Under the pieces are notes generated by a model. It was given only the letters and a program-made list of their open reading frames with translations. It had not been told where the DNA came from and made no database searches. From the IMG/VR virus record IMGVR_UViG_3300032753_000206, positions 1 through 20,229 of that record: a stretch of DNA of 20,229 nucleotides. The stretch is one strand, 5' to 3'. The DNA is from a virus. The first letter of the stretch is position 1, and the number at the start of each line of letters is the position of its first letter. This document shows, one piece after another, positions 782-15,311 of this stretch. The translations under genes were made by a program, and so were the position numbers.

Positions 782-1423
782 ATGTCTGTGATTAACAATG
801 CTATTGCCCTCGCCGAACAATCTGCTCAAGCTGCTACCTCGACTCCCCCTCCCGCCGTCGTCCCCGTCACCGGAACCGCCGTGGCTGTCCCCGGTAAGCG
901 TCTGACGACCGATCAACGTATCGACGCCGGGTTCAGAGTGACGTTCGTGTCGTTCTCCGATTTGGGGACGATGACCTTGGGTAAGGAAAAGAAGCAGTTC
1001 GAGAAGCTGCATCTGATGCTCGAACTGTCTCAAGTCGAGGCTGGATGGGGTTTCCGCCTGGGTGACCCCGTGCGTTACATCCGTACCAGTGACGGCGTCC
1101 TGACCGACGATGGTCGGGTATTCGAGGACGAACTGGCCACGGCGAAGAAGATCGACCCGAAGTTGAAGGTCTACAACTCCTGGCGCATCCCGTTCACGCT
1201 GCTGACCGCAGTGCCGGATCATGCTCAAGGCGAGATGCTCGGGTTCACCACCAACTGGTCGTCCTTCAAGGAGTTCCAACCGTTCTTCGACAAGCTGGTC
1301 GAGAAGTTCGGTAAGGACGCCTCTGTTGAACTCAACCTGACCTGTCGGGTTGCCAAGAACAGCAAGGGCGATGAATACGGTGTTCCCGTGTTCGAACTGA
1401 TCGGCGAAGTCTCGCAAGACTAG
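782..1423 (+). CDS. Unrecognised 213-aa protein; ssDNA-binding protein candidate
   Basis: I do not recognise a family motif. The ATG at 782 is preceded by AGGA at 769-772 (9-nt spacing). The first 40 residues are Ala/Pro/Thr/Val-rich and look like a flexible arm. The rest has alternating hydrophobic strands and loops, with aromatic and basic residues (VTFVSFSDLG, NSWRIPFTLL, TNWSSFKEFQPFF), ending in an acidic tail (GEVSQD). A beta-rich core with a short acidic tail, between a helicase and the exonuclease/polymerase genes and followed by its own terminator, would suit a highly expressed ssDNA-binding protein. That is inference from position and composition only. The 64-nt gap before it (718-781) shows no convincing -35/-10 pair. 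Confidence 0.6.
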   Translation: MSVINNAIALAEQSAQAATSTPPPAVVPVTGTAVAVPGKRLTTDQRIDAGFRVTFVSFSDLGTMTLGKEKKQFEKLHLMLELSQVEAGWGFRLGDPVRYIRTSDGVLTDDGRVFEDELATAKKIDPKLKVYNSWRIPFTLLTAVPDHAQGEMLGFTTNWSSFKEFQPFFDKLVEKFGKDASVELNLTCRVAKNSKGDEYGVPVFELIGEVSQD

Positions 1424-1431
1424 CTCTCAAT

Positions 1432-1468
1432 CCAGGCCTCTTGTCCCACAAGAGGCCTGGACTCTTTT
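1432..1468 (+). terminator. Intrinsic terminator after the 782-1423 gene
   Basis: A perfect 13-bp GC-rich stem (1432-1444 with 1448-1460, CCAGGCCTCTTGT and its reverse complement), a 3-nt CCC loop, and then ACTCTTTT. It starts 9 nt after the stop at 1423 and ends 20 nt before the exonuclease ATG. It should separate expression of the upstream gene from the replication run; some read-through is likely because I see no clear promoter in the 20 nt that follow. Confidence 0.85.
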
Positions 1469-1487
1469 CAGAGTGCGAGAAATTACA

Positions 1488-2249
1488 ATGCTTAAGGTAA
1501 TAGACGCAAACAATTACATTCGCAGATTGATAGAGGCCGATGCTTCCGGTCTGCCCATGCGGAATCTTCTCACCGAAATAAAATCCTCCAAGGACGTTTG
1601 GGTCTTTGTCTGGGACGGTCGTAACGGCAACGAGCGCCGACGCAAACTCTATCCTGAGTACAAGATGAAGCGGAAGCTGCCCACGGAGGATATCTGGAGG
1701 GCAATGGATCTTTTCCGAGAGGTGCTCAGGCACTCCAAGGCAATTCAAGTCACCGTCCCCGAATATGATGCTGATGATGTCATCGCATCCCTGGTTCAGA
1801 ACTATGTGCAGCAAGTTCCTATTGAGATTCATTCAACTGATCGTGACCTTACTGCTCTCGGCGTTCATGTGGTTGGCTGTATTAACCCTAAAGCTCCTCC
1901 TGAGCTTATTCGTTTATACAAAGCAACGGTTGGAGACCCCTCGGACAACATCCCCGGCATCAAAGGCTTCGGGGAAAAGGCTTGGGCGTCCTGCGACAAG
2001 GACGAACTGCTAGAGTGGTACACCCGAGGCGTCACCTTAGCTTGCTCCGACCCAGAGGTTATCTCTGAAGCCTTCTCCATCGGCAAGGCTCACACCAATT
2101 GGCTGATAGAGAACGAGCAGCTCGCTCGAACCTTCTATGACATTGTCGGGTTCTTCCCCCCATCCCTTGAGCTCATCGAGCGTTATACCACGACTGGTAT
2201 TCCGAACGACACGGAGGTCTCGTCCATTCTCAGGAGCTTCCTATTATGA
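1488..2249 (+). CDS. 5'-3' exonuclease (PIN/FEN-type, T5 D15-like)
   Basis: A 253-residue nuclease of the flap endonuclease/5'-3' exonuclease family. It removes RNA primers and flaps during replication and resects ends. Metal-binding acidic residues are in the expected order: D6 (MLKVIDANN), D43 (VWDGRNG), the D94-A-D96-D97 cluster (PEYDADDV), D118/D120 (STDRDL) and D150/D153. GDPSDNIPGIKGFGEKAW (149-166) is the DNA-binding helix-3-turn-helix. The basic stretch ERRRKLYPEYKMKRK is the typical helical arch. I chose the ATG at 1488 over the in-frame GTG at 1473 because the protein then begins directly with the conserved MLKVIDANN; the SD (GAGA, 1477-1480) is weak. It ends in an ATGA overlap with the next gene and sits two genes before a polymerase that lacks its own 5' nuclease domain, so it probably supplies that activity in trans. 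Confidence 0.92.
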   Translation: MLKVIDANNYIRRLIEADASGLPMRNLLTEIKSSKDVWVFVWDGRNGNERRRKLYPEYKMKRKLPTEDIWRAMDLFREVLRHSKAIQVTVPEYDADDVIASLVQNYVQQVPIEIHSTDRDLTALGVHVVGCINPKAPPELIRLYKATVGDPSDNIPGIKGFGEKAWASCDKDELLEWYTRGVTLACSDPEVISEAFSIGKAHTNWLIENEQLARTFYDIVGFFPPSLELIERYTTTGIPNDTEVSSILRSFLL

Positions 2250-2719
2250 GTTACCCTGGATACAAGCCTGCCATGACCTTGGCGCAACGTCAGGAGAGGC
2301 ATCAGCAGTTCATCGCCGACTACCTCGCAGGCATGGACGCCCCGGAGATCGCCGCCAAGCACAAGGTTGTCGTCAGCCTGATCTACACCGTCCTGCGGAA
2401 CAACAAGGTCCAGATGCGCCCGAAGGGTTCGCACCCTCGTAAGCTCACGTCAGACAACGTGATTGAGATCCGCACGGCTTGCAAAGACTTGGACCTCTTG
2501 GCCAAGAAGCTGGGCATCTCCAGGCAATACCTTGTCCAGGTGCGAGCCAAGCAGGCTTGGGCCAAGCTCGATGTTCCAACCAGCCCTGGTAAGCGCGGGA
2601 AGCTCTCTGAACAGGACATCTCCGAGATTGCCCGATCCCAGGAAGATGCCAAGGAAGTCGCCCTCAAGTATGGAATCACCAGGGATTATGTCGTTCGGTT
2701 ACGGAGGATTGCAGCATGA
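2246..2719 (+). CDS. Small protein with three tandem helix-turn-helix units
   Basis: 157 residues with no catalytic motif that I can see. Three similar units are visible: about 21-53 (FIADYLAGMDAPEIAAKHKV, then VSLIYTVLRNN), 66-104 (KLTSDNVIEIRT, then LAKKLGISRQYLVQVRAK) and 119-157 (KLSEQDISEIARS, then ALKYGITRDYVVRLRR). Units 2 and 3 align almost position for position, with the LGISRQYL/YGITRDYV recognition-helix signature, so they look like an internal duplication. Basic Lys/Arg/Pro linkers separate them. It overlaps the exonuclease by ATGA and the polymerase by ATGA. Similar HTH arrays occur as the DNA-binding tails of phage homing endonucleases, so this could be a decayed or co-opted remnant, a regulator, or an origin- or DNA-binding accessory protein. 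No function is assigned. Confidence 0.8.
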   Translation: MSYPGYKPAMTLAQRQERHQQFIADYLAGMDAPEIAAKHKVVVSLIYTVLRNNKVQMRPKGSHPRKLTSDNVIEIRTACKDLDLLAKKLGISRQYLVQVRAKQAWAKLDVPTSPGKRGKLSEQDISEIARSQEDAKEVALKYGITRDYVVRLRRIAA

Positions 2720-5364
2720 CTTCGGTTCTTATCGATGCTCGGAATATCGAGATAAGCCTCCCAGGCTTGATAGCCTCAATGGCTTCGGCGAACATTGTGG
2801 GCATTGACCTGGAAACCGAGGACTCCAATCGACACGAAGGCTTGAATGCCTTCATGAAGACGGACTCCGAGGGGCACAAGGCAGGCAATCGACCCCTTGT
2901 GTTCGATACCCAGCGGACGACGATCTGCGGCTTGTCCATCTTCATTGATGGGAGCACGGAGGCCTATTACTTCAATCTCAACCACCTGGATGTCGAGAAT
3001 CGTATTCCTTGGCCCAAGGTTCTGATGGTCCTGGAAGCCATAAATCCTTCTGCTTGCTGGGTCGCCCACAATGCCATGTTCGAGCGGACGATGTTGAGGA
3101 ATTCCCTGGGCTTCGAATTCAAGAACCCCGTGATCTGCACCCTTCAGATGGCTGTGTCCGCCTACGGCTCCGATGAATACGACCCCAATGATTTCCAAGC
3201 CCTTCCCTTGGGACCTGTGTCAGCGCTCCTGGGCGACATCAACGTAGCCTTCTCCGATTATGACGGCAATCGTCAGACCATGACGGCTCAACAAGGCGAG
3301 CTGTTCCAGAAGTTCCTGGGTAAAGAGTCCGACGCCGCTCATTCCTACAACGGTTGGACCAAGACGATTGGTCGCCCCTATGGCTTGAAGCAGGCAGTCA
3401 AATACTGGTTTGGTTATGACATGCAGACCTTCGAGGAGACCTTGGCGGGTCGAGCACATATGGGTCAGCTCACAGGTGAGGAGACGTTGTCCTACGGCGC
3501 TGATGATGCTGTCTGGGCCGTCCAGCTCTATCACAAGCTCCTTGAATATATGCTGGCCACGAACCCAAAAGTGGTGAAAGCTTTCTTCCAGCAGGAGCTG
3601 CCTTGCGTTGAATATTACTCCGACGTTTGGTCGAAAGGTCTGCGGGTAAACCTTGAAGCCATCCAGGCCAAGCGCATTGAGGAACGTCACCTCTATGCCG
3701 AGACGTTGAGATCGATGCGGGCCTCGATCCGCTCGCTGTTGCCTTTCAAGTCAACACCTCACGAAGGTTTGATGAAGTACGACGCCCATTGGTATGAGAA
3801 GGGCTTCACCAAGTACCGGGACTCCATCACCAAATGGGCGACCCTTCCCGAGACCGAGGATGACACCATCGAGATTCTCAGGGTTCGTGGAGCAATTCCA
3901 ATCGCTCTTGCCAATGATCTAGGCAAGCCTGAACCAAAAGGTCTCTCGATTGCGCATTACATGCCAGTGCGGGTGTTGTTCTACGACCTCCTGGATCAGA
4001 AGCTGATCACCGACAAGGGCAAGACCCAGAGTGATGGTGAAGCCCGTGGAAAATTGATCGATAGGTTCCAGTCGCTCGACTCGGGTGCGAATACAAAAGA
4101 GCTTGGGCTTTCCCTATTGAGGGCCATGGGTGAACTCGCGTCCGTCGAACAACGCGCCAAGCTTTATCTGAACCCCTACAGTCAATTGACCGATCCCGAG
4201 ACGCAACGGATCTATCCCGTGATCTCCTCCAAGTTGGCGACACGTCGGACCTCGATCTCAACACCTAATGGTCAACAATTGGCCAAGCGTGGTGAAAGCA
4301 AATATGTTCGAGGCTTCTACCTGCCCGACCATGATGATCATGTGATCATCTCCGCAGACTGGTCGTCCATCGAACTGGTCATGCTCGCTGAACTCTCGCA
4401 AGACCCAGAGTTCAGGAAGGCTTTCGGCCAATTGCCCTACCAAGATTTGCACCTGGGCGCGACAGCAGCCTGTCTGGGTGTTGTCTGGGAATTCGTCACC
4501 GAGGATTACCTCAAGGGTCTCAAGAGCATGGACCCCAAGGATGTCGATCCCAGGATCTTGACTGATCTCAAGGGTGCAACGATGAAACCCTCGGCGGCGC
4601 TCAAATACTGGCGTACCGAGGTTGGAAAGAAGGCGAACTTCGGTTACTGGTATTCCGGCGCTCTGTCCGACGTGGGACAATCACTGGGCTGGACTTCCGA
4701 CCAGATGTGGGCAGCCGTCGAGGCTTATCGTGAGAGGTTCTCCGTCGCCGAGGAATGGCGCACGGACACCATCAGGTTCGCCCAGGAACATGGTTACATC
4801 CAACTCCCCGATGGTCATCGTCGGGTCAAGTATGAATGCACCCAGAAATGGGCCGAAGCTTTCCTGACCAAGTTCAACTGGTATGACCTCCGGGGTGTGT
4901 CGAACTTCGCTCGGACAGCAATGAAGTCGATCCAGACGAGGTCAGGCAACCAAACGGTCAATGCCATGATTCAAGGGTCATGCGCGGCGATGATGAAGCG
5001 TTCGATCCTTCGCATGAGGGATGCCATCAAGGCCAACGGCTGGACTGATCGGGACGTTCGGACCTTGATCCCCATCCATGATGAAATGCTCCTGTCGGTC
5101 CACAAGTCCTTGGTGGTCCCCGCCATCCAGATGATGCGTGAATGCATGTGCAAACCCGACATCATCTCAACGATGCCCTTGACTGTCGCGCCTGCCGTAG
5201 GCCGCACGTTCGAGCCTTACATCAAAGGCAACAAGAACACCCAGATCGAACTCGGCGAGTTGTCCGATGTCGGCTGCGTCTCCGAGACCCGTTGGGGTCA
5301 GGAAGCAAATGACGACGAGATCAAGCAAATCGTCGAGTGGATTTTTGAGAAGGAGGCTGCGTGA
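2716..5364 (+). CDS. DNA polymerase, family A, with 3'-5' proofreading domain
   Basis: The 882-residue replicative polymerase. N-terminal exonuclease: Exo I is GIDLETED (D31, E33), Exo II is HNAMFERT (E123 where Pol I has D424), Exo III is YGADD (Y260, D264). Polymerase: motif A is SADWSSIELVMLAELSQD (D548), motif B (O-helix) is WRTEVGKKANFGYWYSG (K638, F642), motif C is IPIHDEMLL (H788, D789, E790). Pol I has R712 after IEL in motif A; here it is Val. The leading O-helix Arg is one residue further from the Lys than in E. coli Pol I. F642 sits at the position of E. coli F762, which usually means discrimination against dideoxynucleotides. There is no N-terminal 5' nuclease domain; the separate gene at 1488 replaces it. 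It is coupled to its neighbours by ATGA upstream and TGATG downstream. Confidence 0.96.
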   Translation: MTSVLIDARNIEISLPGLIASMASANIVGIDLETEDSNRHEGLNAFMKTDSEGHKAGNRPLVFDTQRTTICGLSIFIDGSTEAYYFNLNHLDVENRIPWPKVLMVLEAINPSACWVAHNAMFERTMLRNSLGFEFKNPVICTLQMAVSAYGSDEYDPNDFQALPLGPVSALLGDINVAFSDYDGNRQTMTAQQGELFQKFLGKESDAAHSYNGWTKTIGRPYGLKQAVKYWFGYDMQTFEETLAGRAHMGQLTGEETLSYGADDAVWAVQLYHKLLEYMLATNPKVVKAFFQQELPCVEYYSDVWSKGLRVNLEAIQAKRIEERHLYAETLRSMRASIRSLLPFKSTPHEGLMKYDAHWYEKGFTKYRDSITKWATLPETEDDTIEILRVRGAIPIALANDLGKPEPKGLSIAHYMPVRVLFYDLLDQKLITDKGKTQSDGEARGKLIDRFQSLDSGANTKELGLSLLRAMGELASVEQRAKLYLNPYSQLTDPETQRIYPVISSKLATRRTSISTPNGQQLAKRGESKYVRGFYLPDHDDHVIISADWSSIELVMLAELSQDPEFRKAFGQLPYQDLHLGATAACLGVVWEFVTEDYLKGLKSMDPKDVDPRILTDLKGATMKPSAALKYWRTEVGKKANFGYWYSGALSDVGQSLGWTSDQMWAAVEAYRERFSVAEEWRTDTIRFAQEHGYIQLPDGHRRVKYECTQKWAEAFLTKFNWYDLRGVSNFARTAMKSIQTRSGNQTVNAMIQGSCAAMMKRSILRMRDAIKANGWTDRDVRTLIPIHDEMLLSVHKSLVVPAIQMMRECMCKPDIISTMPLTVAPAVGRTFEPYIKGNKNTQIELGELSDVGCVSETRWGQEANDDEIKQIVEWIFEKEAA

Positions 5365-5795
5365 TGTCAAACACGGGCAAAGACTCCGAGGCGTTCTTCG
5401 AACGCCACATTCAATCCCTGGGTAAGGAAGCTTATCTGGAGAGGAGGATCGACCTTGCACATGTTCGAGGTCTCAACCCTGGCATCAAGAACCTGCGGTT
5501 TCCTCCGCAGCCCTCGGATTACATCCTCACCTTGTACAAGGTGACGCATTACGTCGAGGTCAAGTCCTCGGTGAACAAGACAAGTTTTCCCTTCAGCCAA
5601 ATAGAACCCGAACAGCGGGCTGCGGCAAAGAAGGTGACGGCAGCGGGAGGAAGCTACATCTTCTTCCTTCATGCCCTAATAACCAACAGTTGGTACTGCG
5701 TCCCAGCGAAGTACATTCTGGACCTGATCAATGAAGGCAAAGGCTCTGTTAAATGGGAGGACCTAGAACGGTTTCTAGGAGATCCTTTATGGTAG
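5364..5795 (+). CDS. RecU-like / PD-(D/E)xK Holliday-junction-resolvase-type nuclease
   Basis: A 143-residue protein with the full PD-(D/E)xK pattern: E13 (SEAFFERHI), PSDYIL (D52), YVEVKSS (E65, K67), then FPFSQIEPEQ (Q84 in the RecU/Hjc position) and a strand-helix tail GGSYIFFLHAL. RecU-family enzymes cleave four-way junctions; related phage enzymes also act as general recombination or repair nucleases. The start is the ATG at 5364, with AAGGAGG at 5350-5356 and 7-nt spacing, the strongest SD in the block; a GTG at 5361 is too close. The stop of the polymerase overlaps it (TGATG). Context with gp46/47-like genes suggests recombination-dependent replication or branch resolution before packaging. 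It could instead be a restriction-like nuclease of the same fold. Confidence 0.75.
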   Translation: MSNTGKDSEAFFERHIQSLGKEAYLERRIDLAHVRGLNPGIKNLRFPPQPSDYILTLYKVTHYVEVKSSVNKTSFPFSQIEPEQRAAAKKVTAAGGSYIFFLHALITNSWYCVPAKYILDLINEGKGSVKWEDLERFLGDPLW

Positions 5796-6343
5796 ATAAG
5801 TATTATTCGGAATGCATGGTGGATATTGAGACGACGGGTTTGTTTCCTGATCGCTCGGCCATGATTCAATTGGCCGCAGTGCGGTTTGATCTTGAGACCA
5901 AAGAAGTTGACACTCGGTTCTTCTATCGCGCCTTGAAGATGCCACCTTGGCGCTTCTGGCAGGAGTCAACCTGGGACTGGTGGTCGGACAAACCTGAAAT
6001 CCTGACGGACATCGTTAGCCGGATGGAAGACCCCGCCGTCGTGATGCAAGACTTCTTCAACTGGTCAGTCGCCCAAGACGGTCCTGCTCCTCGGTTTTGG
6101 TCCAAGCCGCTTTCCTTCGACTTCCCTTTTGTCTCCTCGTACTTCCGAGATTTCGGTCTGAGCATGCCTTACAACTATTCCCAGGCGATGGACATGCGGT
6201 CCTTCATGCGGGGACGTTTAGGACTCAAGCAGTTCAAGGAACCAAAACCGGAATTCGTCGGCAACGCACACAACGCGCTCTCAGACACCATCCATCAGAT
6301 CAAAGTGCTCTTTGAGCATGAGGAGACCCTCAATGACCGTTAA
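5789..6343 (+). CDS. DnaQ-fold 3'-5' exonuclease (T4 DexA / Rv2179c-like)
   Basis: 184 residues with a complete DEDDh active site: D12 and E14 (MVDIETTGL), D111 (PLSFDFPFV), H161 and D166 (HNALSDT). The MVDIETTGL opening, the FWSKPLSFDFPF block and the Trp-rich middle (WRFWQESTWDWW) resemble the exonuclease A (DexA)/Rv2179c subgroup rather than polymerase epsilon-type subunits. Substrate could be ssDNA or RNA; some relatives are 3'-5' exoribonucleases. I chose the ATG at 5789 because AGGAG (5777-5781) lies 7 nt upstream; the upstream frame back to 5753 lies inside the previous gene. It overlaps that gene by 7 nt, so translation is probably coupled. Confidence 0.88.
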   Translation: MVDKYYSECMVDIETTGLFPDRSAMIQLAAVRFDLETKEVDTRFFYRALKMPPWRFWQESTWDWWSDKPEILTDIVSRMEDPAVVMQDFFNWSVAQDGPAPRFWSKPLSFDFPFVSSYFRDFGLSMPYNYSQAMDMRSFMRGRLGLKQFKEPKPEFVGNAHNALSDTIHQIKVLFEHEETLNDR

Positions 6344-6548
6344 GATTTCCCTCTACCTTCATGGAAAACAGGAGGCCATCTGCTTGGACCTCCCAATTCA
6401 AGCGGACTCCGAGAGCCTCCTCCAGTTTCGGAAGAAGCTCCTCGACAGCGAGAACATCACCTTGATGTCTTCGTCGGGAGACGTTCTCTGGGTCGATACA
6501 TCAGCCCTCGTGGCTTTCCAATTAACAACTGCTCAAGGGAGCGCATGA
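6333..6548 (+). CDS. Small hypothetical protein (71 aa)
   Basis: I do not recognise it. The ATG at 6333 follows AGGAG (6321-6325) by 7 nt and overlaps the end of the exonuclease gene by 11 nt. The stop overlaps the next ATG (ATGA at 6545). The protein opens with MTVKISLYLHGKQEAICLDL. It has alternating strand-like segments and one amphipathic helix around LLQFRKKLLD, and looks like a small alpha/beta or beta-barrel domain with no cysteines beyond one and no signal or membrane segment. The exact overlaps on both sides make it very likely a real gene. Position before the Mre11/Rad50 pair hints at an accessory role, but nothing in the sequence proves it. Confidence 0.7.
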   Translation: MTVKISLYLHGKQEAICLDLPIQADSESLLQFRKKLLDSENITLMSSSGDVLWVDTSALVAFQLTTAQGSA

Positions 6549-7489
6549 TGAAAATCAACATCCTCGGTGATGTTCACCTTGGCCGAGTTTTCAAGAACGG
6601 CGTCCCGCTTCACCGTCGTGGTGAGCGGGAGAAGTCGATCTTCGACCAATTCTGCCTTGAACTCCAAACCGACTGCGATGTCCTGATCCAGGTCGGTGAC
6701 ATCTTCGACAAGCATCGAGTCGATCTCAATGTGGTACTCGACACATCCATTGCCATTGGGGTCTACGCCAAGGCTCAACCCCAGAAGCAGTTCTATTTCC
6801 TCCGAGGCAACCATGATGCCTCCAGGGACATGGAGAAGGTCAGCAGCTTCGATGTGCTGAGACACCTCTGCGCTGGCAACTCGAATGTCTTCTTCATCAC
6901 GGACAAGCCGACCTATGTGGTCCTTGATCCCGAGACGACCATTCTGATGTTGCCTTGGCACCCCGTGAAGTCCTCGGTCGAGATGATCTCCACCTGTCTA
7001 GGCCCTGCTGAGATCGTCGTTGGTCATTGGGATCACATGGTCGTCAAGGATGACCACAACATGATCCCACTGGACCACCTGAAACAACTCACCAAGTGTG
7101 TCGCTTCAGGACATGACCATGTGGCTCGTGTCTATAAGCACGAGAAGATGGTGGTCAATATCGTTGGCTCCATGCAACCTCTGACCCATGCGGAAGACCC
7201 CAATGGCAACCTATATATCACCAGGACCTTGGCTGAGTTCTCGGCCCTTGACCCGGGAGACTATCGAAACAAATGTGTCCGAATCCTCCTGGCTGATGGG
7301 GAGCTACCCCCATCAGACGTTGACTGTCTCCAACTTACCTTCAAGAAGGTCGGGCAGGACGAAGGACTCGAGGTTGATTTCGATGACGCCTTCGACATGA
7401 ATAAGCTCTTTGATGAGGTCACCACAGGTCTGGATGCTGACACCATCGAAGCTTTGAACGCCAAATGGCAAGAGGTCCGACATGCTTAA
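6545..7489 (+). CDS. Mre11/SbcD-type nuclease subunit (T4 gp47-like)
   Basis: A 314-residue calcineurin-like phosphoesterase with all Mre11 metal motifs in order: GDVHLG (D9, H11), GDIFD (D52), GNHD (N89, H90, D91), GHWDH (H161) and SGHDH (H190, H192). It is the nuclease half of the gp46/gp47 complex, which processes DNA ends to load recombinases in recombination-dependent replication; it works with the ATPase encoded next. The start ATG at 6545 overlaps the previous stop (ATGA); a second ATG follows at 6548. The C-terminal acidic region (about 260-314: VDFDDAFDMNKLFDEV) is where the family caps and binds the Rad50 partner. It overlaps the partner gene by 8 nt, giving coupled, near-equal synthesis. 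Confidence 0.95.
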   Translation: MMKINILGDVHLGRVFKNGVPLHRRGEREKSIFDQFCLELQTDCDVLIQVGDIFDKHRVDLNVVLDTSIAIGVYAKAQPQKQFYFLRGNHDASRDMEKVSSFDVLRHLCAGNSNVFFITDKPTYVVLDPETTILMLPWHPVKSSVEMISTCLGPAEIVVGHWDHMVVKDDHNMIPLDHLKQLTKCVASGHDHVARVYKHEKMVVNIVGSMQPLTHAEDPNGNLYITRTLAEFSALDPGDYRNKCVRILLADGELPPSDVDCLQLTFKKVGQDEGLEVDFDDAFDMNKLFDEVTTGLDADTIEALNAKWQEVRHA

Positions 7490-9398
7490 GAAACTGAAGT
7501 TCAACGTCACTTTCCCCACAGGCAAACACATAACACAGGACATCATCTTCGATGGCGGCACGACAGCAATCACCGGCAAGAACGGCAAGGGTAAGAGCCT
7601 CGTCTTGGAAATGGCCACCTATGCTCTCTTTGGATCGGCAGCAGCTCGAGGACCTTCTGGCGACTATTCCAAGTGCGACGTGTCACTTGAGCTTTCGATC
7701 CGAGGGGAGGATTACACAGTCGCCCGCAGCAATGGAACCAAAGCCAGTCTCTCTCGTGGGAATGACATCCTCGCCACTGGGACCACTCCGGTCAACGCCA
7801 AAGTCGTAGAACTCCTCGGCTACGACTTGAGCGTCTTCAAGGTCGGCAACCTCGTCGGCCAGGGAGAGATCGAAGCCCTGACGACCATGAAGCCATCGGA
7901 ACGCAAGCGGCTGATCGACACCACCATTGGTTTGGACGCCCTGGACGAAGTGGCTGCCTGGGCTTCCAACGAAGCTGCCTTGTTCCGTAAGGAAGCCGAA
8001 ACCTTGGAAAGGTTCATGCAAAAGCCAGTGAGGCCCGAGCAGCCTGAGAATTATCGGGAGTCCTCGATTGTTATCCCCCTCTTGGACCAAGCCGTCGCGG
8101 ATCGATCTGAACGCGACACTCTGCGCGGATGGCTCCAACGGGGCCAGTCAGCTCCCAACAAGCCTGCTTGTCCTGTGGAGACGCCCTCCGAGGAGCTTGC
8201 CAAGGAGGTCGAGGCCTTCCAGACGAAGTCCGCGATCCTCCAAAGGTGGTTGAAGCTGCCCGAAGCCATCTGGACCAAGGCGCAGGTCGAGAAGGTGGAG
8301 AAGCTCTGGGCCAAGTATGACGAGTGGTTGGTTTGGGAGGCTCTGCCGCCATACCTGGATACCAACATGGCTCATATCAAGGACCTGCGCCAACAGTGGG
8401 CGGATTGGAAGGCCTACCAGAAGTTTGCACAGCATAAGACGAGTTGCCCCAAGTGTGAGCACGAATTCATCCCTGGACACGCCGTCGCTGAAGTGGAGCG
8501 GCCTGTGCTGTCCCTGGAGGCTCTGGATGAACAGGAACGTGTTCTGAAGGCTTGGGAAGGTCGCAATCCCAAGAACAAGCCTTCGCCCGCGCTTAAGCCT
8601 GATAATTCCAAGGCCGAACTGGAACAAGCCAAGGCGGCGCTCCTTGTCCAATCGGAACGGGAGGAACTGTTCAAGCAGATTGAGGGCTTCACACCAGACA
8701 ATGACCCCACTCCCGCCTACAAAAACCGTCTGGCCTATGAAGCCCAGATGGTTCAGTACGCAAAGGCATTGGAAGCTTTTGAAGCTTGGGAAGCGGAAGC
8801 GTCGATCAAGCGTACACGTTTAGAGAACCTGTCGAATGTTGACGAAGTTTTCGACAAGTTGAACGCCGAGAAGGCCTCATCGCTGGCTTATGAGCGTATG
8901 ATGTTGGGCTACGACAACGCCCTGATCGAATACGAGGAGCAGCTCGAACAACACAGTGAAGCGGTCCATAGGGCTGAACAACTTAAGTTAGGGGCCGCTG
9001 CGATGAAGGAGCTGAAGCTCCGCATCAAGACCTACCTTGTTCCGTCCTTGAGCAAGGTCGCAACTCACCTGATCCAACAGATGACGCTGGGTCAGGAGCA
9101 GGAGTTGACCTCGGTCCAGGTGAACGAAGAGTTTGAGATCACCATCGATGGTCAACCCGTGGAGACTCTCAACGGTTCTGGTAAGACTGTAGCCAACCTT
9201 GCTGTCCGCATTGGTTTGGGTCAAATCCTGACCAATAAGATGTTCTCGGTGCTGATGGCGGATGAAGTGGACGCCGCCTGTGATGATGAACGTGCCGCAG
9301 CCATCGCTGGCTGCCTGCAAGGCCTGACACCCAACATTCAGCAAGTGTTGATCGTATCCCACAAAGACATTGCTGCGGACAATCAGATCGAACTCTGA
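7482..9398 (+). CDS. Rad50/SbcC-type ATPase subunit (T4 gp46-like)
   Basis: A 638-residue SMC-like ATPase, the partner of the preceding nuclease. Walker A is GKNGKGKS (32-39), a zinc hook CPKC lies almost exactly in the middle (C322, C325), the ABC signature region reads LNGSGKTVANLAVRIGL (about 565-581), and Walker B is VLMADEVDA (D594, E595), followed by the H-loop SHKD near the end. It is much shorter than E. coli SbcC and near T4 gp46 in size, so the coiled-coil arms are short. Proline-rich breaks interrupt the arms (around 184-190, 224-233, 364-376 and 402-408), which is unusual for a stiff coil. The known role is to hold and open DNA ends for the nuclease. It is the last gene before the 9399-9464 junction. 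Confidence 0.95.
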   Translation: MLKKLKFNVTFPTGKHITQDIIFDGGTTAITGKNGKGKSLVLEMATYALFGSAAARGPSGDYSKCDVSLELSIRGEDYTVARSNGTKASLSRGNDILATGTTPVNAKVVELLGYDLSVFKVGNLVGQGEIEALTTMKPSERKRLIDTTIGLDALDEVAAWASNEAALFRKEAETLERFMQKPVRPEQPENYRESSIVIPLLDQAVADRSERDTLRGWLQRGQSAPNKPACPVETPSEELAKEVEAFQTKSAILQRWLKLPEAIWTKAQVEKVEKLWAKYDEWLVWEALPPYLDTNMAHIKDLRQQWADWKAYQKFAQHKTSCPKCEHEFIPGHAVAEVERPVLSLEALDEQERVLKAWEGRNPKNKPSPALKPDNSKAELEQAKAALLVQSEREELFKQIEGFTPDNDPTPAYKNRLAYEAQMVQYAKALEAFEAWEAEASIKRTRLENLSNVDEVFDKLNAEKASSLAYERMMLGYDNALIEYEEQLEQHSEAVHRAEQLKLGAAAMKELKLRIKTYLVPSLSKVATHLIQQMTLGQEQELTSVQVNEEFEITIDGQPVETLNGSGKTVANLAVRIGLGQILTNKMFSVLMADEVDAACDDERAAAIAGCLQGLTPNIQQVLIVSHKDIAADNQIEL

Positions 9399-9402
9399 GT
9401 TT

Positions 9403-9412
9403 GTCAATTGAC
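9403..9412. other. 10-bp perfect palindrome GTCAATTGAC
   Basis: It lies 5 nt after the stop of the gp46-like gene, in the only real intergenic gap (66 nt) in this part of the block. Its right half contains TTGACG, but no good -10 lies 16-18 nt downstream, so I do not call a promoter. It could be an operator half of a regulated site; evidence is position and symmetry only. Confidence 0.4.
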
Positions 9413-9419
9413 GCTCACA

Positions 9420-9455
9420 CCTTCGCTTCCAAACAAATAGAATTGGAAGCGAAGG
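9420..9455 (+). promoter_or_regulatory. 13-bp hairpin that overlaps the Shine-Dalgarno of the 9465 gene
   Basis: Bases 9420-9432 (CCTTCGCTTCCAA) pair perfectly with 9443-9455, loop 9433-9442. The 3' arm contains the first four bases of the ribosome binding site AAGGAG (9452-9457), which is 7 nt from the ATG at 9465. There is no U-tract after the stem, so termination is less likely than translational control of the next gene or protection of the upstream mRNA end. The structure is seen; the control role is inferred. Confidence 0.6.
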
Positions 9456-9464
9456 AGAGAGTTA

Positions 9465-9827
9465 ATGCCCCTCACAAAAGAACAAGTTGAAGCCTTAGAC
9501 CAAGAACTGGCAAACAACGGCGGTCAGTTGACCAAAGCTGCTGGGCGTCTGAGTCTTGATCTGGGTGAAGCAATCACTCATGTCCGTCAGAAAGGGATCA
9601 ACAACATTAAGATCCCAAGAAAGGAACTTGAGAAATACATCGTGGCACACCGCAAAGGTGTTGGAAATTGGATTGCCACCGAGGCAATGATTGTAGCTCG
9701 CGCCAAATACGACGCTGGTCTTGTCGAGATGTGTACCTACCGTTTCGAAGACATCTTCTACCTGTTGTCCATCCCCCGGAAGCATCGTGCTCGCCGTCGC
9801 CCTTATTTCGGACGCTTTGAAGACTAG
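9465..9827 (+). CDS. Hypothetical 120-aa protein, possible N-terminal HTH
   Basis: I do not recognise a family. Residues 5-45 (KEQVEALDQELANNGGQLTKAAGRLSLDLGEAITHVRQKG, read in two parts) resemble a Fis- or HTH-like element in which a first helix is followed by QLTKAAGRLSL. The C-terminal tail is strongly basic (IPRKHRARRRPYFGRF), which suggests nucleic-acid binding. The start at 9465 has AAGGAG 7 nt upstream, partly locked in a hairpin. It is followed after 13 nt by thyX. A DNA- or RNA-binding regulator is the simplest reading, but this is inference. Confidence 0.65.
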   Translation: MPLTKEQVEALDQELANNGGQLTKAAGRLSLDLGEAITHVRQKGINNIKIPRKELEKYIVAHRKGVGNWIATEAMIVARAKYDAGLVEMCTYRFEDIFYLLSIPRKHRARRRPYFGRFED

Positions 9828-9840
9828 GAGAACCCCAAAA

Positions 9841-10566
9841 ATGGGTAGCAACAACTATGCAGACGTTCTGGATCACGGATTTGTGATCCTCCGTAACATT
9901 GCCGGTCCCACTCGTCGGCTCGACGCTGAGTTCGACGCAGACGATATTGACCCCGCCAATGTGGCCCGTATCAGCTTCGACGGCTTGGACAAGGCTCGCA
10001 CCCGCGATCAGGACCTAAAGCTTGCCGACTTCTTGATGAAGAACAAGCACAACACGCCTTGGGAGATGATCGAGGTTTGGCTCGAGATGAAGCTGCCGAT
10101 TTTCGTGGCGAGGCAGTTCGTCAGACACCGGACGGTTTCCCTCAATGAGGTCTCCGCTCGCTATGTCACCCTGCCCAAGGAATGGTATATCCCGGAGCTG
10201 AAGCATATCGGCGTCAAGCCCGAGAGTGTGAAGCAAGGTCGTTCTCTTGAGGAACACAACCCCGAGATGGCTCAGATCTTCATCGACAAGCTCCAAGCCA
10301 CCTGTGATCACTCCTACCAGGAATACGTCGAGGCCATTCGATCTGGAGTTCCCTCGGAACTGGCTCGCTGCTTCCTGCACATGAACCATTACACCCATTG
10401 GGTCTGGAAGCAGAACCTTTCGAACCTGTTCCACTTCTTGAGTCTCCGAGACCATTCGCATGCTCAGTACGAGGCTCAAGCCTACGCTCGGGCAATCGAC
10501 AGCCTGATTCGTCGGGTGCTCCCACATTCCATGGAAGTGTACGACAAGTATCGGAGGTTCGAGTGA
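9841..10566 (+). CDS. thyX: FAD-dependent thymidylate synthase ThyX
   Basis: 241 residues. It methylates dUMP to dTMP using methylene-tetrahydrofolate and NADPH with FAD as hydride carrier. The diagnostic motif RHRxxSxNExSxRY is present exactly as RHRTVSLNEVSARY (95-108). H70 in FLMKNKHNTPWE fits the conserved FAD/dUMP site, and the C-terminal LIRRVLPHS block is also typical. The ATG at 9841 lies 10 nt after AGGAG and begins a normal-length ThyX; longer readings run back into the preceding gene in another frame. Its stop overlaps the next GTG start. It lies upstream of the MazG-like, dNMP kinase and dCTP deaminase genes in a nucleotide-supply cluster. Confidence 0.97.
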   Translation: MGSNNYADVLDHGFVILRNIAGPTRRLDAEFDADDIDPANVARISFDGLDKARTRDQDLKLADFLMKNKHNTPWEMIEVWLEMKLPIFVARQFVRHRTVSLNEVSARYVTLPKEWYIPELKHIGVKPESVKQGRSLEEHNPEMAQIFIDKLQATCDHSYQEYVEAIRSGVPSELARCFLHMNHYTHWVWKQNLSNLFHFLSLRDHSHAQYEAQAYARAIDSLIRRVLPHSMEVYDKYRRFE

Positions 10567-10778
10567 GCTTCATCGTCATCGGTAAAGAGATTCATTACCT
10601 GGGTCAACCTGTGGCCACCATTCATGAAGGACTTTCGGCAACCTTGGAAGACTGCATGATTGCTCGACTCAAAGGTCTCCCATGTGTGGAAGCTGCCCGC
10701 AGGAACCTCGAAGCTGCTCAACAAGCCTTCGAAGACAAGAAAAGGAAACATTTCCATGGTGCTGGTAAGAACAAGTGA
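10563..10778 (+). CDS. Small hypothetical protein (71 aa, GTG start)
   Basis: I do not recognise it. GTG at 10563 lies 5 nt after GGAGG (10553-10557) and overlaps the thyX stop (GTGA), which is strong support for this start. The product begins MSFIVIGKEIHYLGQPVATI, a strand-turn-strand start, followed by a helix AARRNLEAAQQAFEDKKRKH and a basic tail. One Cys pair (C31, C40) is present. It overlaps the next small gene by 23 nt. Confidence 0.7.
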   Translation: MSFIVIGKEIHYLGQPVATIHEGLSATLEDCMIARLKGLPCVEAARRNLEAAQQAFEDKKRKHFHGAGKNK

Positions 10779-10923
10779 TACTCCCGTCAAGGTCATCAAG
10801 ACCAAAGACGGTAAGGTGATCAACATCTACTCTGGCGTTCCTCTTGAACGTCTGAAGCGTAACTTAGCCAATGCCAAGCGCAGCACTGCTGGTCGTTGGT
10901 ATAGCGGGAAGAAGTCATCATGA
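10756..10923 (+). CDS. Very small basic protein (55 aa)
   Basis: A short gene wedged between two others: ATG at 10756 inside the end of the preceding gene, and stop overlapping the next ATG (ATGA at 10920). An AGGA lies about 9 nt before the start. The product is strongly basic (KVIKTKDGKVINIYSGVPLE, then RLKRNLANAKRSTAGRWYSGKK) and resembles a tiny nucleic-acid-binding or ribosome-associated peptide, but no family is recognised. The tight overlaps are the main evidence that it is translated. Confidence 0.6.
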   Translation: MVLVRTSDTPVKVIKTKDGKVINIYSGVPLERLKRNLANAKRSTAGRWYSGKKSS

Positions 10924-11330
10924 AACAAATCAAGACACCCACACACTTTGACCAAATCCGCATTGCAGAAGGCTTCGAAGCCCTCTGCCATGCAGCCCAC
11001 GGAGCGTCCGTCGCTGCCGGATGGTGGACCGATCTGGTCACAGGACAATCCACCATTGGCATTCGGAACAAACCCGAGATGTTGATGCTGATGGTCTCCG
11101 AACTGGCCGAGGCCATGGAAGGTCTCCGCAAGAACCTGAGGGATGACAAATTGCCTCACCGCCCATGGTCGAAGTCGAGCTGGCCGACTGCGTCATTCGC
11201 ATTGCCGACTTCGCTGGTGCCTATGGCTACGACGTGGCCGGGGGCCATCATCGAGAAGATGGCATTCAACGCCCAGCGGGAGGATCACAAGATCGAGAAC
11301 CGCCTGAAAGAGGGAGGTAAACAGTTCTGA
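10920..11330 (+). CDS. MazG-like nucleotide pyrophosphohydrolase carrying two compensating frameshifts
   Basis: The N-terminal part is an all-alpha NTP pyrophosphohydrolase: SELAEAMEGLRK (60-71) supplies the first ExxE metal motif (E61, E64). The second motif should follow at about residue 83. The translated frame instead reads WSKSSWPTASFAL to residue 107, while the +1 frame over 11165-11239 reads MVEVELADCVIRIADFAG and continues AYGYDVA, with the ExxD motif ELAD intact. The original frame then resumes with GAIIEKMAFNAQREDH. One base is thus missing near 11163-11165 and one extra G lies in the GGGGG run 11240-11244. Either these are sequencing errors and the true protein is normal, or a 25-residue core segment has been replaced and activity lost. 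The family cleaves dNTPs to dNMP and PPi. It overlaps both neighbours (ATGA, TGATG). Confidence 0.8.
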   Translation: MKQIKTPTHFDQIRIAEGFEALCHAAHGASVAAGWWTDLVTGQSTIGIRNKPEMLMLMVSELAEAMEGLRKNLRDDKLPHRPWSKSSWPTASFALPTSLVPMATTWPGAIIEKMAFNAQREDHKIENRLKEGGKQF

Positions 11331-11656
11331 TGACCCGCAAAGACTTCTTCGCATGGATGGCGGTACTCTTCGTCATTCTGATCTTCGTTGGAGTGCTCAA
11401 TGGCTTTGGCCTCGGCATGAAGGCTCTGTTTGCTCCTGCTTCTGTGGCCATCGACAACAAGGTCTTCCACGAAAGCCAGCAGTACAACGACAGCATGGCT
11501 CATGACTTGGACGATCTGCGTCTGAGCTATCTTTCGGCCACACCTGAAGGCAAAGCCGTCATTCGTGCCACCATTCTCCACCGCTTCGGTGGCTTTGATG
11601 CATCTCATCTGGCCCCCGATCAACAGTTGTTCCTCACCCAAATCCGGGGGTTCTAA
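11330..11656 (+). CDS. Small membrane protein, one N-terminal transmembrane helix
   Basis: 108 residues. A single hydrophobic helix covers about 7-29 (FAWMAVLFVILIFVGVLNGF and on), preceded by MTRKD (a short positive start), so the bulk probably faces the periplasm. The soluble part (FHESQQYNDSMAHDLDDLRL and then AVIRATILHRF) is helical. From memory, proteins of this shape with an SQ-Y-ND/NDG motif are found in several large tailed phages beside a lipoprotein like the one next door; the function is unknown to me. GGAGG lies about 12 nt upstream and TGATG couples it to the previous gene. Confidence 0.75.
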   Translation: MTRKDFFAWMAVLFVILIFVGVLNGFGLGMKALFAPASVAIDNKVFHESQQYNDSMAHDLDDLRLSYLSATPEGKAVIRATILHRFGGFDASHLAPDQQLFLTQIRGF

Positions 11657-11658
11657 CC

Positions 11659-12156
11659 ATGAAAACCAAGTATCTCTTTGCGCTGCCGTTGATGCTGTTG
11701 ACCGCTTGTAATTCCGAAGCTTCATCTGACAGCATCCAGCGCAAGCAACAAGAATTGATGTTGAAACAAGGAACCCAAGTGGTGGGGATGCCCGACATCA
11801 GCAACTTTGCGGAGCGCAAGCTGCTGAAGGACATTCTGGAGCTGCGTGACAAGATGCCGCCGACCATCACCTACGTGATGGACATGAACGGCCATCTGCA
11901 CAAGCGGTGCGACAGCTTAGGATATGGCATTCCATATGCCACGCAGTTCACAAGCCCCCAAAGGCCTGCGTCCTATAGTGAAACAACCCAACAAGGCAAC
12001 ATTGTCCTGCCACAAGCGGACCCCAACGGTCTATTCAGCCCCGCTTCTGCCGAAGGCACTTGGGTGCTGTGCTTAAACCCGGAAACCAAGCTGGCTGTGC
12101 CGTTGTACATTGAAGACCGCATTACGGTCTCACCCTTTGCGCTGAAGGATCAATGA
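11659..12156 (+). CDS. Phage lipoprotein of the 'YGIPYATQ' type
   Basis: 165 residues with a textbook lipoprotein signal: MKTKYLFALPLMLLTAC, lipobox LTAC with C17 as the lipidated residue. The mature part contains ISNFAERKLLKDILELRDK, ITYVMDMNGHLHKRC, LGYGIPYATQFTSPQ, LPQADPNGLFSPASAEGTWV and ITVSPFAL. From memory this set of blocks recurs in lipoproteins of large phages; no activity is known to me. It lies 2 nt after the membrane protein gene. Both products should sit at the inner-membrane or periplasm face, so they may act together on the host envelope (for example exclusion of other phages or lysis timing), which is inference. Next gene begins 2 nt after its stop. Confidence 0.8.
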   Translation: MKTKYLFALPLMLLTACNSEASSDSIQRKQQELMLKQGTQVVGMPDISNFAERKLLKDILELRDKMPPTITYVMDMNGHLHKRCDSLGYGIPYATQFTSPQRPASYSETTQQGNIVLPQADPNGLFSPASAEGTWVLCLNPETKLAVPLYIEDRITVSPFALKDQ

Positions 12157-12158
12157 AC

Positions 12159-12686
12159 ATGAAACTGATCGCATTCATCGGCAATCAAACCGCTGGAAAA
12201 ACCACGGCTGCCAAAATCCTCGAGACCCACTACGGTTGGCATCGTACCCGCTTTGCTGGACCACTTCGCAGCATGCTCCGAGGCATTGGTCTGGGGGATT
12301 ACGAATTGGAAGGAGAAGGCAAGAACAAGCCTTGCGCTCTCCTTGGTGGTCACACCCCTGTCTATGCTTTGCAGACCTTGGGGACAGAGTGGGGGCGCAA
12401 GCTCATTGGCCCCAACTTCTGGGTATCAGCTTGGGAGCACATCGCCTTGGACATCCTCAATCTTGGTGGCAAAGTCGTCGTCGATGATCTCCGGTTTCCC
12501 AATGAGGCTGAGAAGATCCTTGACCTGGGTGGAACCATCGTTCGCATCAACCGCCCTGGTGTTGGTCGGCAGTCAATGCATGAGTCCGAGGACTTCACTG
12601 AAAAACTGACACCCCATTTCGAGATCCTCAACGATGGATCTTTCAACACCTTGGAAACAAGTTTGCAGGAGCTGCTTGCGCCATGA
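12159..12686 (+). CDS. Deoxynucleoside monophosphate kinase (T4 gp1-like)
   Basis: 175 residues from the ATG at 12159. The P-loop GNQTAGKTT starts at residue 8 after the strand MKLIAFIG. Further kinase features are RFAGPLRSML (substrate-side helix), ALQTLGTEWGRKLIGPNFWV (conserved lid/substrate region of phage dNMP kinases), VVVDDLRFPNEAE (Walker B-like VVDDLRFPNE, diagnostic of the family) and a C-terminal IVRINRPG strand. It phosphorylates dTMP, dGMP and similar to diphosphates. I prefer 12159 over the ATG at 12153 because AAGGA (12145-12149) is 9 nt from the former but only 3 nt from the latter. It overlaps the deaminase gene by ATGA. Confidence 0.9.
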   Translation: MKLIAFIGNQTAGKTTAAKILETHYGWHRTRFAGPLRSMLRGIGLGDYELEGEGKNKPCALLGGHTPVYALQTLGTEWGRKLIGPNFWVSAWEHIALDILNLGGKVVVDDLRFPNEAEKILDLGGTIVRINRPGVGRQSMHESEDFTEKLTPHFEILNDGSFNTLETSLQELLAP

Positions 12687-13150
12687 CTGTTCTATCAGCC
12701 CAGAGCATCCGGCGTCGTCAGGTGATCATGCCGTTCTACGAACGGGAGCAAATGTACGGTCTTTCCTTTGGCCTCAGTGCCAATGGATATGATGTCCGCA
12801 TCGCCGAGGATCGCATCATGTGGCCTGGGCGCTTCTGCCTCGCTTCGACAATCGAAGAGTTCAGGATGCCTGACAACTTGATGGCCATCGTTCATGACAA
12901 GTCCACCTGGGCAAGACGTGGCTTGACCGTGCAGAACACGGTGATAGAAGCAGGCTGGTCAGGTTTCCTGACTCTCGAGCTGACGCTGCATTCCTTCAAG
13001 CCCGTCATAATCTGGGCAGGCAGCCCGATTGCCCAGATCGTGTTTCATCAACTGGATGAACCGACAGAGCAGCCCTATTCTGGAAAGTACCAGAATCAGA
13101 AGCGGGGTCCGCAGGAAGCTATCCTGTTGCGACCACGAAGGGCATTTTAA
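12683..13150 (+). CDS. dcd: dCTP deaminase (dCTP deaminase/dUTPase superfamily)
   Basis: 155 residues. SANGYDVRI is the strand that opens the trimeric beta-fold, HDKSTWARRGL carries the phosphate-binding Ser and Arg, TVIEAGWSGFLTLEL contains the catalytic Glu in LEL (equivalent to E138 of E. coli Dcd), and GSPIAQIVFHQLDEP plus YSGKYQNQKRG form the C-terminal nucleotide lid. The reaction is dCTP to dUTP (or directly to dUMP in bifunctional relatives), giving substrate for ThyX. No separate dUTPase is seen here, so a bifunctional form is possible but cannot be told from motifs alone. AGGAG lies 11 nt before the ATG. Its last 32 nt overlap the end of the opposing tail gene. Confidence 0.92.
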   Translation: MTVLSAQSIRRRQVIMPFYEREQMYGLSFGLSANGYDVRIAEDRIMWPGRFCLASTIEEFRMPDNLMAIVHDKSTWARRGLTVQNTVIEAGWSGFLTLELTLHSFKPVIIWAGSPIAQIVFHQLDEPTEQPYSGKYQNQKRGPQEAILLRPRRAF

Positions 13151-15311
13151 CCGTCTGCTGCGCCACGGTTACCACCTTCGTCTGCAAGACCGTTGCAGAC
13201 GAAGGCCTCCCCCCAAAATAGACCTGCTGACCGCCAATGATGGCCATCTGTGGCACCGAGAGGTTCGGCGCGTTCTTGATGATCTGCATTGACCCATCCG
13301 AAACGAATGGTCCGAAGTTATCATTCGCGGAGCCTTCATCGACGACTCCAATGACCCCACTCGAGATGAAGGGTCCGAAGTTGTCATTCGCACTTCCGAC
13401 ATCAGCTACGCCGATGACACCGTTCGAGATGAACGGGTCCATGAAGTCCATGCCACGGATGGCTTGACTTCCGACGAGACCTTCAGAGATGAAAGGCTCG
13501 ATGAAATCCCAACCACTGGCATTTGCCCCAACCTCGACGACAGCCATGCTGCTGAAGCTCGGGATGCTTGATGCCGCAGTGAAGGCGGCTCCGACGACGA
13601 TCTGTCCTGATGTGCAGGAGAAGTCAGGAGCAATGGTATCTGTCCCCGAGGCTGCTGCCCCCTCCTTCAAGGTTCCAGAGGATGTGAAGCTCCCAAAGGT
13701 GTCATTGCCTACCAGAGCGGATTCCGCGAGCAATGAGGCAGCGGAGACGAAGGTGGGGGCTACATCGGCACCACTGGCGCTGTTACCCACCTCAACGGTC
13801 GCCGCAGACACCATAGCGGAGATGGTGCTTGTGCCCAGAACAATGTCAGCCGCAGCCGTGAAGGTCAGCGAGCCTGAGCTTGCGAACGCCAGAATGCTGC
13901 TCGTGCCGCTCAAGGCGATCTTAACCACCAATGTGGCTGTCGAGACAAAAGCGGGAACCACACTTGCGCCAATGATCGCGTCGTAGTCACCCATAGTCGC
14001 CGTTGAGACGAAGGGGCTGATCATATCAGCTCCAGAGGCGATGTTTCCCTCGGCACCGGTTGCCGTCGAAACAAAGGGACTGATCGTATCGGCTCCAGAG
14101 GAGGAAGCTCCATGAGTACCGGTGGCAGCCGAGACGAATGGGCTGATCGTATCGGCACCAGATGCAGCCGTCTTGGCGACCAAGGTTGCTGTCGAGACGA
14201 AGGGGCTGATCGTATCGGCACCGGACATTGGATCTTGTTGAACAGCAGACGCCGACGAGGTGAACGCCTGAACAGCGTCCGATCCTGAAAGGACCGCGCC
14301 TTCGTTCATGTTGTCCAAGCTTACGAAGGGACTGATCGTGTCGGCACCTGTGATCAAGACCGTCAGAGTGACGGTGCCTGTCGAGACGAATGGGCTGATC
14401 ATGTCGGCACCAGAGAAGGAAGCCCCATGAGCACCGGTTGCTGTCGAGACGAAGGGATTGATCGTATCAGCACCAGACGCAGTCGTCTTGGCGACCAAGG
14501 TCGCCACTGAGGTGAAGACACTGATCGTATCGGCCCCTGTGAGTGCAATATCATGCACCAGGGTTGCCGTCGAGACGAATAGACTGATTGTATCGGCACC
14601 AGAGGAGGAAGCTCCATGAGCACCTGTGGCCGTCGAGACAAAGGGACTGATCGTGTCCGAACCTGTCGCCTGAACTGTCAAGGTGACGACGCCAGCCGAG
14701 ACGAACGGACTGATCGTGTCGGCACCGGACAGAGCATCCTCTTGTGTGACCGTCGCAGCCGAGACAAACGGACTGATCGTGTCGCCTCCAGAGCAGGAGG
14801 CCCCGTGAGAACCGGTGGCTATCGAAACGAACGGACTGATCGTATTGGCACCTGCAAGTGCAGTTTCATGAACCAGTGTTGCCGTTGAGGTGAAGACACT
14901 GATCGTATCGGCACCCGACATTGAGTCCAGAGCTGCCCCAGCGTTCACCACACCACTGGAACTGAAGGCTCCCAAAGCTGTTGGACCATCGGAAATGATG
15001 TTCCCAACTTCAGGTGAGCCTGAGCTGATGAAGTTGGCGACAGAGTCTGGGCCATCGGAAATGGTATTTCCAACTTCAGGTAAGCCTGAACTGATGAAGT
15101 TGGCGAGGACGCTCGAGCCAACCAAGGTGGTGATGACGATCCCCAAGGTCGTCGGATCGAACAACTTGATCACCGTCGCCGTCGTCTGCGTCGGATGCAC
15201 ATAAATATTGGTCGAGACAACAGGGTCGAGAAGCACTGGACGAAGTCTGATCGTCGTTGTGCTTGTCTCCGTCGCAAAGGCCTTGATCGTGCGACTGTTC
15301 GTCATGATCAC
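13119..15311 (-). CDS. 730-aa tail-fibre-like protein made of ~28 tandem 21-residue repeats
   Basis: The last gene of the leftward block. Residues 1-64 form a distinct N-terminal region with many Thr and Val (RTIKAFATETSTTTIRLRPV). Residues about 65-680 are tandem units with consensus SGADTISPFVSTAT plus a variable seven-residue tail (LVAKTA, GAHGAS, VTLTV types). The last 50 residues (from MQIIKNAPNLSVPQM) are unique. The Gly/Asp turn followed by ISPFVS and a short strand in every unit would suit a beta-solenoid or extended trimeric fibre. It is almost devoid of Cys and Trp. The start is GTG at 15311 (overlapping the previous stop) or ATG at 15305; the SD is weak. Adhesive fibre or head/tail decoration is inferred from composition, repeats and neighbours. 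The stop lies inside the opposing deaminase gene. Confidence 0.8.
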   Translation of the reverse strand: MIMTNSRTIKAFATETSTTTIRLRPVLLDPVVSTNIYVHPTQTTATVIKLFDPTTLGIVITTLVGSSVLANFISSGLPEVGNTISDGPDSVANFISSGSPEVGNIISDGPTALGAFSSSGVVNAGAALDSMSGADTISVFTSTATLVHETALAGANTISPFVSIATGSHGASCSGGDTISPFVSAATVTQEDALSGADTISPFVSAGVVTLTVQATGSDTISPFVSTATGAHGASSSGADTISLFVSTATLVHDIALTGADTISVFTSVATLVAKTTASGADTINPFVSTATGAHGASFSGADMISPFVSTGTVTLTVLITGADTISPFVSLDNMNEGAVLSGSDAVQAFTSSASAVQQDPMSGADTISPFVSTATLVAKTAASGADTISPFVSAATGTHGASSSGADTISPFVSTATGAEGNIASGADMISPFVSTATMGDYDAIIGASVVPAFVSTATLVVKIALSGTSSILAFASSGSLTFTAAADIVLGTSTISAMVSAATVEVGNSASGADVAPTFVSAASLLAESALVGNDTFGSFTSSGTLKEGAAASGTDTIAPDFSCTSGQIVVGAAFTAASSIPSFSSMAVVEVGANASGWDFIEPFISEGLVGSQAIRGMDFMDPFISNGVIGVADVGSANDNFGPFISSGVIGVVDEGSANDNFGPFVSDGSMQIIKNAPNLSVPQMAIIGGQQVYFGGRPSSATVLQTKVVTVAQQTVKMPFVVATG
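13175..13205. other. Perfect 13-bp hairpin just past the convergent gene ends
   Basis: CCTTCGTCTGCAA (13175-13187) pairs exactly with 13193-13205 around the loop GACCG. On the + strand it lies 25 nt after the deaminase stop; on the - strand it is inside the last codons of the repeat fibre gene (ATVLQTKVV). There is no T-run on either side. It probably limits read-through between the two opposed operons or shields mRNA 3' ends, but this is inferred. Confidence 0.6.
13270..15119 (-). repeat. 63-bp coding tandem repeat array (about 28 units)
   Basis: The units encode the 21-residue repeat of the fibre protein. Conservation is highest at about 13990-14930, where units such as the one encoding GADTISPFVSTATGAHGAS recur nearly word for word. 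There is a higher-order order of unit types (LVHETA / GSHGAS / VTLTV; GAHGAS / LVHDIA / LVAKT; LVAKTA / GTHGAS), which suggests duplication of several units at a time. The outer units, especially those at 13280-13550 and 14950-15119, have diverged (NDNFGPFISSGVIG and VANFISSGLPEVG types). Confidence 0.9.

What the first reader, a model, noticed from the sequence alone, without database searches (positions are those of the whole stretch)
11163..11244. Two compensating frameshifts replace the second metal motif of a MazG-like enzyme
The frame read from 10920 to 11330 has the first ExxE motif (E61, E64) and a normal C-terminus, but residues 83-107 look foreign. The +1 frame over exactly that stretch encodes MVEVELADCVIRIADFAG and then AYGYDVA, the expected ExxD helix. 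A one-base loss near 11163-11165 and one extra G in GGGGG (11240-11244) explain both ends. If real, the phage has kept the ORF open while destroying the active site; if not, it is a pair of indel errors and the gene should be corrected to about the same length.
Basis: partly seen in the sequence, partly recalled or inferred. Interest (0 to 1): 0.6.

Follow-up and report, generated by a model that had tools for sequence, protein, structure and literature searches.

The report
Phage MazG-like gene with compensating frameshifts
A common phage enzyme gene that normally breaks down nucleotides carries one lost and one gained base 77 bases apart, which together scramble its catalytic helix; this is most likely a local error in one contig and at best a recently killed ordinary enzyme.

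Summary
The 136-codon frame at 10920-11330 is a MazG-like nucleotide pyrophosphohydrolase gene (PHROG 5658) in which residues 83-107 are out of register. The other frame encodes the expected catalytic helix MVEVELADCVIRIADFAGAYGYDVA. In 26 relatives this stretch is 70% identical to the displaced frame and 7% to the frame as printed. The second motif (E87, D90) is present in 194 of 194 relatives, and 193 of them read through in one frame. A codon-usage scan that ignores relatives finds the same break (21 bits; other genes at most 10). The displaced frame shows no decay, so the change is either very recent or not biological. The contig is an isolated 20-kb virus record without close relatives or reads here, so error and real compensated frameshift cannot be separated. 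I favour a local consensus error (about 0.6) over a real, recent double mutation that kills the enzyme (about 0.35). Programmed double frameshifting is very unlikely. The enzyme itself is ordinary.

The parts
10920..11330 (+). MazG-like nucleotide pyrophosphohydrolase gene, 136 codons as printed, with an out-of-register stretch
11100..11111 (+). first metal motif E61-L-A-E64, in the main frame
   Evidence: E61 in 193 of 193 and E64 in 192 of 193 aligned relatives
11160..11165 (+). first register change: one base fewer than the family register needs (CGCCCA; probably a CCCC run shortened to CCC)
11165..11239 (+). displaced stretch: its other frame (phase of 10922) encodes MVEVELADCVIRIADFAGAYGYDVA; the printed frame reads WSKSSWPTASFALPTSLVPMATTWP (residues 83-107, codons 11166-11240)
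11177..11188 (+). second metal motif E-L-A-D (E87, D90 in family numbering), present only in the displaced frame
   Evidence: invariant in 194 of 194 relatives
11240..11244 (+). second register change: GGGGG, one base more than the family register needs
11330..11656 (+). next gene, whose ATG overlaps the stop codon of the MazG-like gene (TGATG)

Best explanation
This is an ordinary phage MazG-like (all-alpha) nucleotide pyrophosphohydrolase gene of the PHROG 5658 kind, lying in a nucleotide-metabolism cluster (ThyX, dNMP kinase, dCTP deaminase). In this contig two one-base length changes of opposite sign, 77 bases apart and each next to a short homopolymer (C run at 11162-11164, G run at 11240-11244), put 25 codons out of register. 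The intact enzyme would bind Mg2+ through ExxE (E61, E64) and ExxD (E87, D90) on two helices and split dNTPs into dNMP and pyrophosphate. As printed, the second helix carries no ExxD and several prolines, so the product would be catalytically dead. Shown: the register changes, their position, and the loss of the invariant residues. Inferred: the activity, and the cause. I think it most likely that the two changes are errors of the contig consensus from one poorly covered stretch, since both sites fit in one short read, rather than mutations in the phage.
For: The displaced frame is undamaged: 0.70 identity to relatives, as high as the flanks (0.59, 0.67), with every invariant column kept. This fits a change with no evolutionary age. 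Both sites are homopolymer-length changes. None of 194 related loci, from viral contigs and from 80 bacterial or archaeal contigs, has the same change. [quoted passage not shown] The record is a lone 20,229-base virus contig with no near relative found.
Against: No other gene of the window shows a frame break; a generally error-prone assembly should show more, especially at the longer runs (17 runs of five G or C and two of six C). Under independent errors, two random runs of four or more lie within 80 nt only about 1% of the time, and they compensate half the time. A real pair with selected frame restoration explains the compensation better. The sequencing method and coverage are unknown.
Confidence: 0.6

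Rival explanations
1. The two changes are real and recent. One frameshift inactivated the phage enzyme, and a second one nearby restored the C-terminal frame and the normal stop, which overlaps the start of the next gene (TGATG). The product keeps its length and perhaps its fold but lacks the ExxD motif, so it is a dead enzyme, tolerated because MazG is dispensable in that host or kept only for translational coupling.
For: The two changes compensate, and the gene is the only one affected in 20 kb. Natural compensated frameshift pairs exist and arise readily in experimental phage evolution (PMC8935012). A related phage contig, L017, has an uncompensated frameshift at almost the same codon, so loss of this gene may be tolerated.
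Against: The displaced frame shows no decay at all. The frame hit is the catalytic one. A single change alone would still end only about 12-25 bases before the next start, so coupling gives weak reason for compensation.
Confidence: 0.35
2. Programmed or frequent recoding: ribosomes slip -1 at CCA (re-pairing on CCC) and +1 at GGGGG, so that some product has the active-site helix and most does not.
For: By inspection both sites allow re-pairing in the needed direction; the displaced frame is undamaged.
Against: Two inefficient shifts would have to occur in one pass. There is no heptameric slippery site at the first shift. No relative uses such an arrangement: 193 of 194 read in one frame. L017 has a change of the opposite sign at the first site.
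Confidence: 0.02
3. Residues 83-107 are a normal part of a different family, or a new functional helix.
For: AlphaFold2 still draws a shortened helix there when given the relatives' alignment.
Against: No relative has the residues. Codon usage rejects the printed frame there. Model confidence drops to 74-78 there, against 98-99 at the same place in the intact relative, and the helix in the model is probably imposed by the alignment.
Confidence: 0.02

Closest known systems
PHROG 5658 phage pyrophosphatase (MazG-like), e.g. Sinorhizobium phage AP-16-3 and the Pseudomonas phage phiPsa374 group
   Same: Family match over residues 6-136 once the displaced frame is read (220 bits); up to 64% identity to named phages; motifs ExxE and ExxD.
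   Different: As printed, residues 83-107 and the ExxD motif are missing.
Cyanophage S-PM2 MazG (PMC6850273)
   Same: Same broad class of phage-borne nucleotide pyrophosphohydrolase; that enzyme prefers dGTP and dCTP and does not hydrolyse (p)ppGpp.
   Different: I did not test direct homology to it; the window protein matches no Pfam MazG model above threshold.
All-alpha NTP pyrophosphatases of known structure (DCTPP1, iMazG, HisE, DR2231)
   Same: The fold of the intact relative L004 has these among its best structural matches.
   Different: Foldseek E-values are weak (1 and above); by sequence only MazZ 7ody is reached, at E 0.22.
Pairs of compensatory frameshifting mutations (PMC8935012, PMC8127213)
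   Same: Two short indels of opposite sign close together that restore the frame.
   Different: [quoted passage not shown] here the pair covers the catalytic helix, and reality is not established.

Membership tests
PHROG 5658 / MazG-like nucleotide pyrophosphohydrolase | Full-length match to the family profile | tested here: met
   220.3 bits over 6-136 with the displaced frame read; as printed 141.9 bits, best stretch 6-82
PHROG 5658 / MazG-like nucleotide pyrophosphohydrolase | First metal motif ExxE | tested here: met
   E61, E64
PHROG 5658 / MazG-like nucleotide pyrophosphohydrolase | Second metal motif ExxD in the printed protein | tested here: not met
   Printed frame has no ExxD at 87-90; it exists only in the displaced frame, while 194 of 194 relatives have it
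PHROG 5658 / MazG-like nucleotide pyrophosphohydrolase | Pyrophosphohydrolase activity | not testable with these tools
   No assay
All-alpha NTP pyrophosphatase fold | Four-helix fold as in MazG, DCTPP1 and HisE | tested here: inconclusive
   Intact relative L004: pLDDT 95, four main helices, best structural matches DCTPP1, iMazG and HisE, but no match with E below 1
Compensatory frameshift pair | Two indels of opposite sign with conserved register outside and foreign sequence between | tested here: met
Compensatory frameshift pair | Present in the organism rather than in the assembly | not testable with these tools
   No reads, no near relative
Programmed ribosomal frameshifting | Conserved frame change at a slippery site across relatives | tested here: not met
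   Relatives read in one frame

The most novel reading that the evidence does not exclude
A phage has really replaced the catalytic helix of its MazG-like enzyme by a compensated frameshift and keeps the inactive, correctly sized protein for a non-catalytic role such as nucleotide binding or mixed oligomers with the host enzyme.
Probability: 0.04. Interest if true: 0.45.

Novelty: new member of a known kind. Interest (0 to 1): 0.15.

Why it matters
Mainly a caution about annotation: an open, normal-length ORF with an ordinary start and stop can hide a pair of indels that removes an active site, and length or stop-codon checks do not see it. If the change were real, it would be a natural example of a compensated frameshift across a catalytic motif in a phage auxiliary metabolic gene.

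Tried and rejected
Pfam gave no match for the printed protein or the displaced stretch, nor for the read-through protein. Near-identical DNA was sought in phage records, by an exact 33-base pattern in viral contigs, and through the DNA polymerase, SbcC and ThyX genes: no close relative was found. Overlap with a second gene was considered: the displaced frame from ATG 11165 runs 51 codons, but relatives read that stretch as the middle of the enzyme, so it is not a separate gene. Structure models of the printed protein do not decide the matter because the alignment steers them.

Full report
What is there. The ORF at 10920-11330 encodes 136 residues. Residues 1-82 and 108-136 belong to the MazG-like phage pyrophosphatases; residues 83-107 (WSKSSWPTASFALPTSLVPMATTWP) do not. 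The frame of 10922 encodes MVEVELADCVIRIADFAGAYGYDVA over the same DNA.

Relatives. Thirty-four viral loci were first found with a protein in which the displaced frame was read through, then 80 viral and 80 bacterial or archaeal loci with an alignment. Against 26 viral relatives, residues 82-107 are 70% identical on average in the displaced frame and 7% in the printed frame; the left flank is 59% and the right flank 67%. Of 194 loci, 193 give matches in one frame only; E87 and D90 are present in all 194. The one exception, L017, has a single frameshift close to the first site but of the other sign. The count of 194 includes some contigs fetched twice under different ids. PHROG 5658 rises from 141.9 bits in two pieces to 220.3 bits in one.

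Evidence that does not use relatives. Codon usage learned from the other genes prefers the printed frame up to about 11145, the displaced frame between 11145 and 11249, and the printed frame again after that (near 10950-11024 another frame scores about as high as the printed one). A scan for the best out-of-frame stretch gives 21.0 bits at exactly 11160-11244. Other genes give at most 10.0 bits, apart from two that I had entered in the wrong frame in that call; the one on the + strand scored 2.9 in the repeat, and the fragment at the right end of the window was not re-scanned. In a check of the scan's power, artificial shifts of the same spacing that left the gene open were found in 104 of 130 cases. 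So the MazG-like gene is the only gene seen with such a break, with about 80% power per event.

Nature of the two changes. At the first site the DNA is CGC CCA TGG; the family register needs one base more before ATG. Many relatives have CCC ATG there, and other genes of the window use CCC 110 times against 40 for CCA, so a shortened C run is likelier than a lost A. At the second site a G run has five bases where four fit the family register.

Error or reality. For error: the displaced frame has not decayed, both changes are run-length changes, both sites fit in one short read, the catalytic helix is hit, and no relative shares the change. For reality: the changes compensate, no other gene is affected, and two random runs of four or more lie within 80 nt only 1% of the time. 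The last point weighs against independent errors but not against a single bad read in a thinly covered stretch. Published compensated pairs tend to lie in poorly conserved regions (PMC8935012). I put error at 0.6 and reality at 0.35. This is a judgement: neither the reads nor a near relative could be seen.

Function. The intact relative L004 folds with high confidence (pLDDT 95), and its best structural matches are DCTPP1, iMazG and HisE (weak E-values). That ExxE and ExxD hold the metal ions rests on established knowledge of this superfamily, not on a test here. A cyanophage MazG was shown to prefer dGTP and dCTP and not to hydrolyse (p)ppGpp (PMC6850273), so a role in the nucleotide pool is more likely than control of the stringent response. 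The neighbours fit: ThyX, dNMP kinase and dCTP deaminase.

Source. The window resembles Caulobacter phage Seuss and Achromobacter phage JWF in gene order (DNA polymerase, Holliday junction resolvase, exonuclease, SbcD, SbcC, dNMP kinase) at 31-45% protein identity. Neither has a recognisable copy of this MazG-like gene in the compared 31 kb, although both carry other genes annotated as related to pyrophosphohydrolases or MazG. L082, a viral contig with a 44% identical polymerase fragment nearby, has the gene in one frame.

Noticed in passing
L017:3139-3146: A related phage MazG-like gene has a single uncompensated frameshift (after HRKM, at GGGCC) at almost the same codon as the first change in the window, of opposite sign; its frame then ends at a stop after RGRAC.
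   Followed up: partly
L015, L016, L035, L036 (about 3001-3580): MazG-like relatives with an in-frame insertion of about 60 residues after the second metal motif, followed by a second copy-like helix and the normal C-terminus; perhaps an internal duplication.
   Followed up: no
L044, about 1841: The MazG-like ORF has an in-frame stop a few codons before the normal C-terminus (ENRNK*GGKEF), possibly a recoded stop or a late nonsense change.
   Followed up: no
10960-10993: A 34-base near-perfect inverted repeat inside the MazG-like coding sequence (88% match to its own reverse complement).
   Followed up: no
13119-15311, - strand: A 730-residue protein made largely of repeats of the type GADTISPFVSTAT, next to tail or structural genes.
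   Followed up: no
window 13-13150: Gene order matches the replication modules of Caulobacter phage Seuss and Achromobacter phage JWF at 31-45% protein identity; no near relative was found in the searches made.
   Followed up: partly
PQ438181.1 29120-31653 (Acinetobacter phage Mystique): The DNA polymerase relative is annotated in four pieces, which suggests frameshifts or split genes in that record.
   Followed up: no
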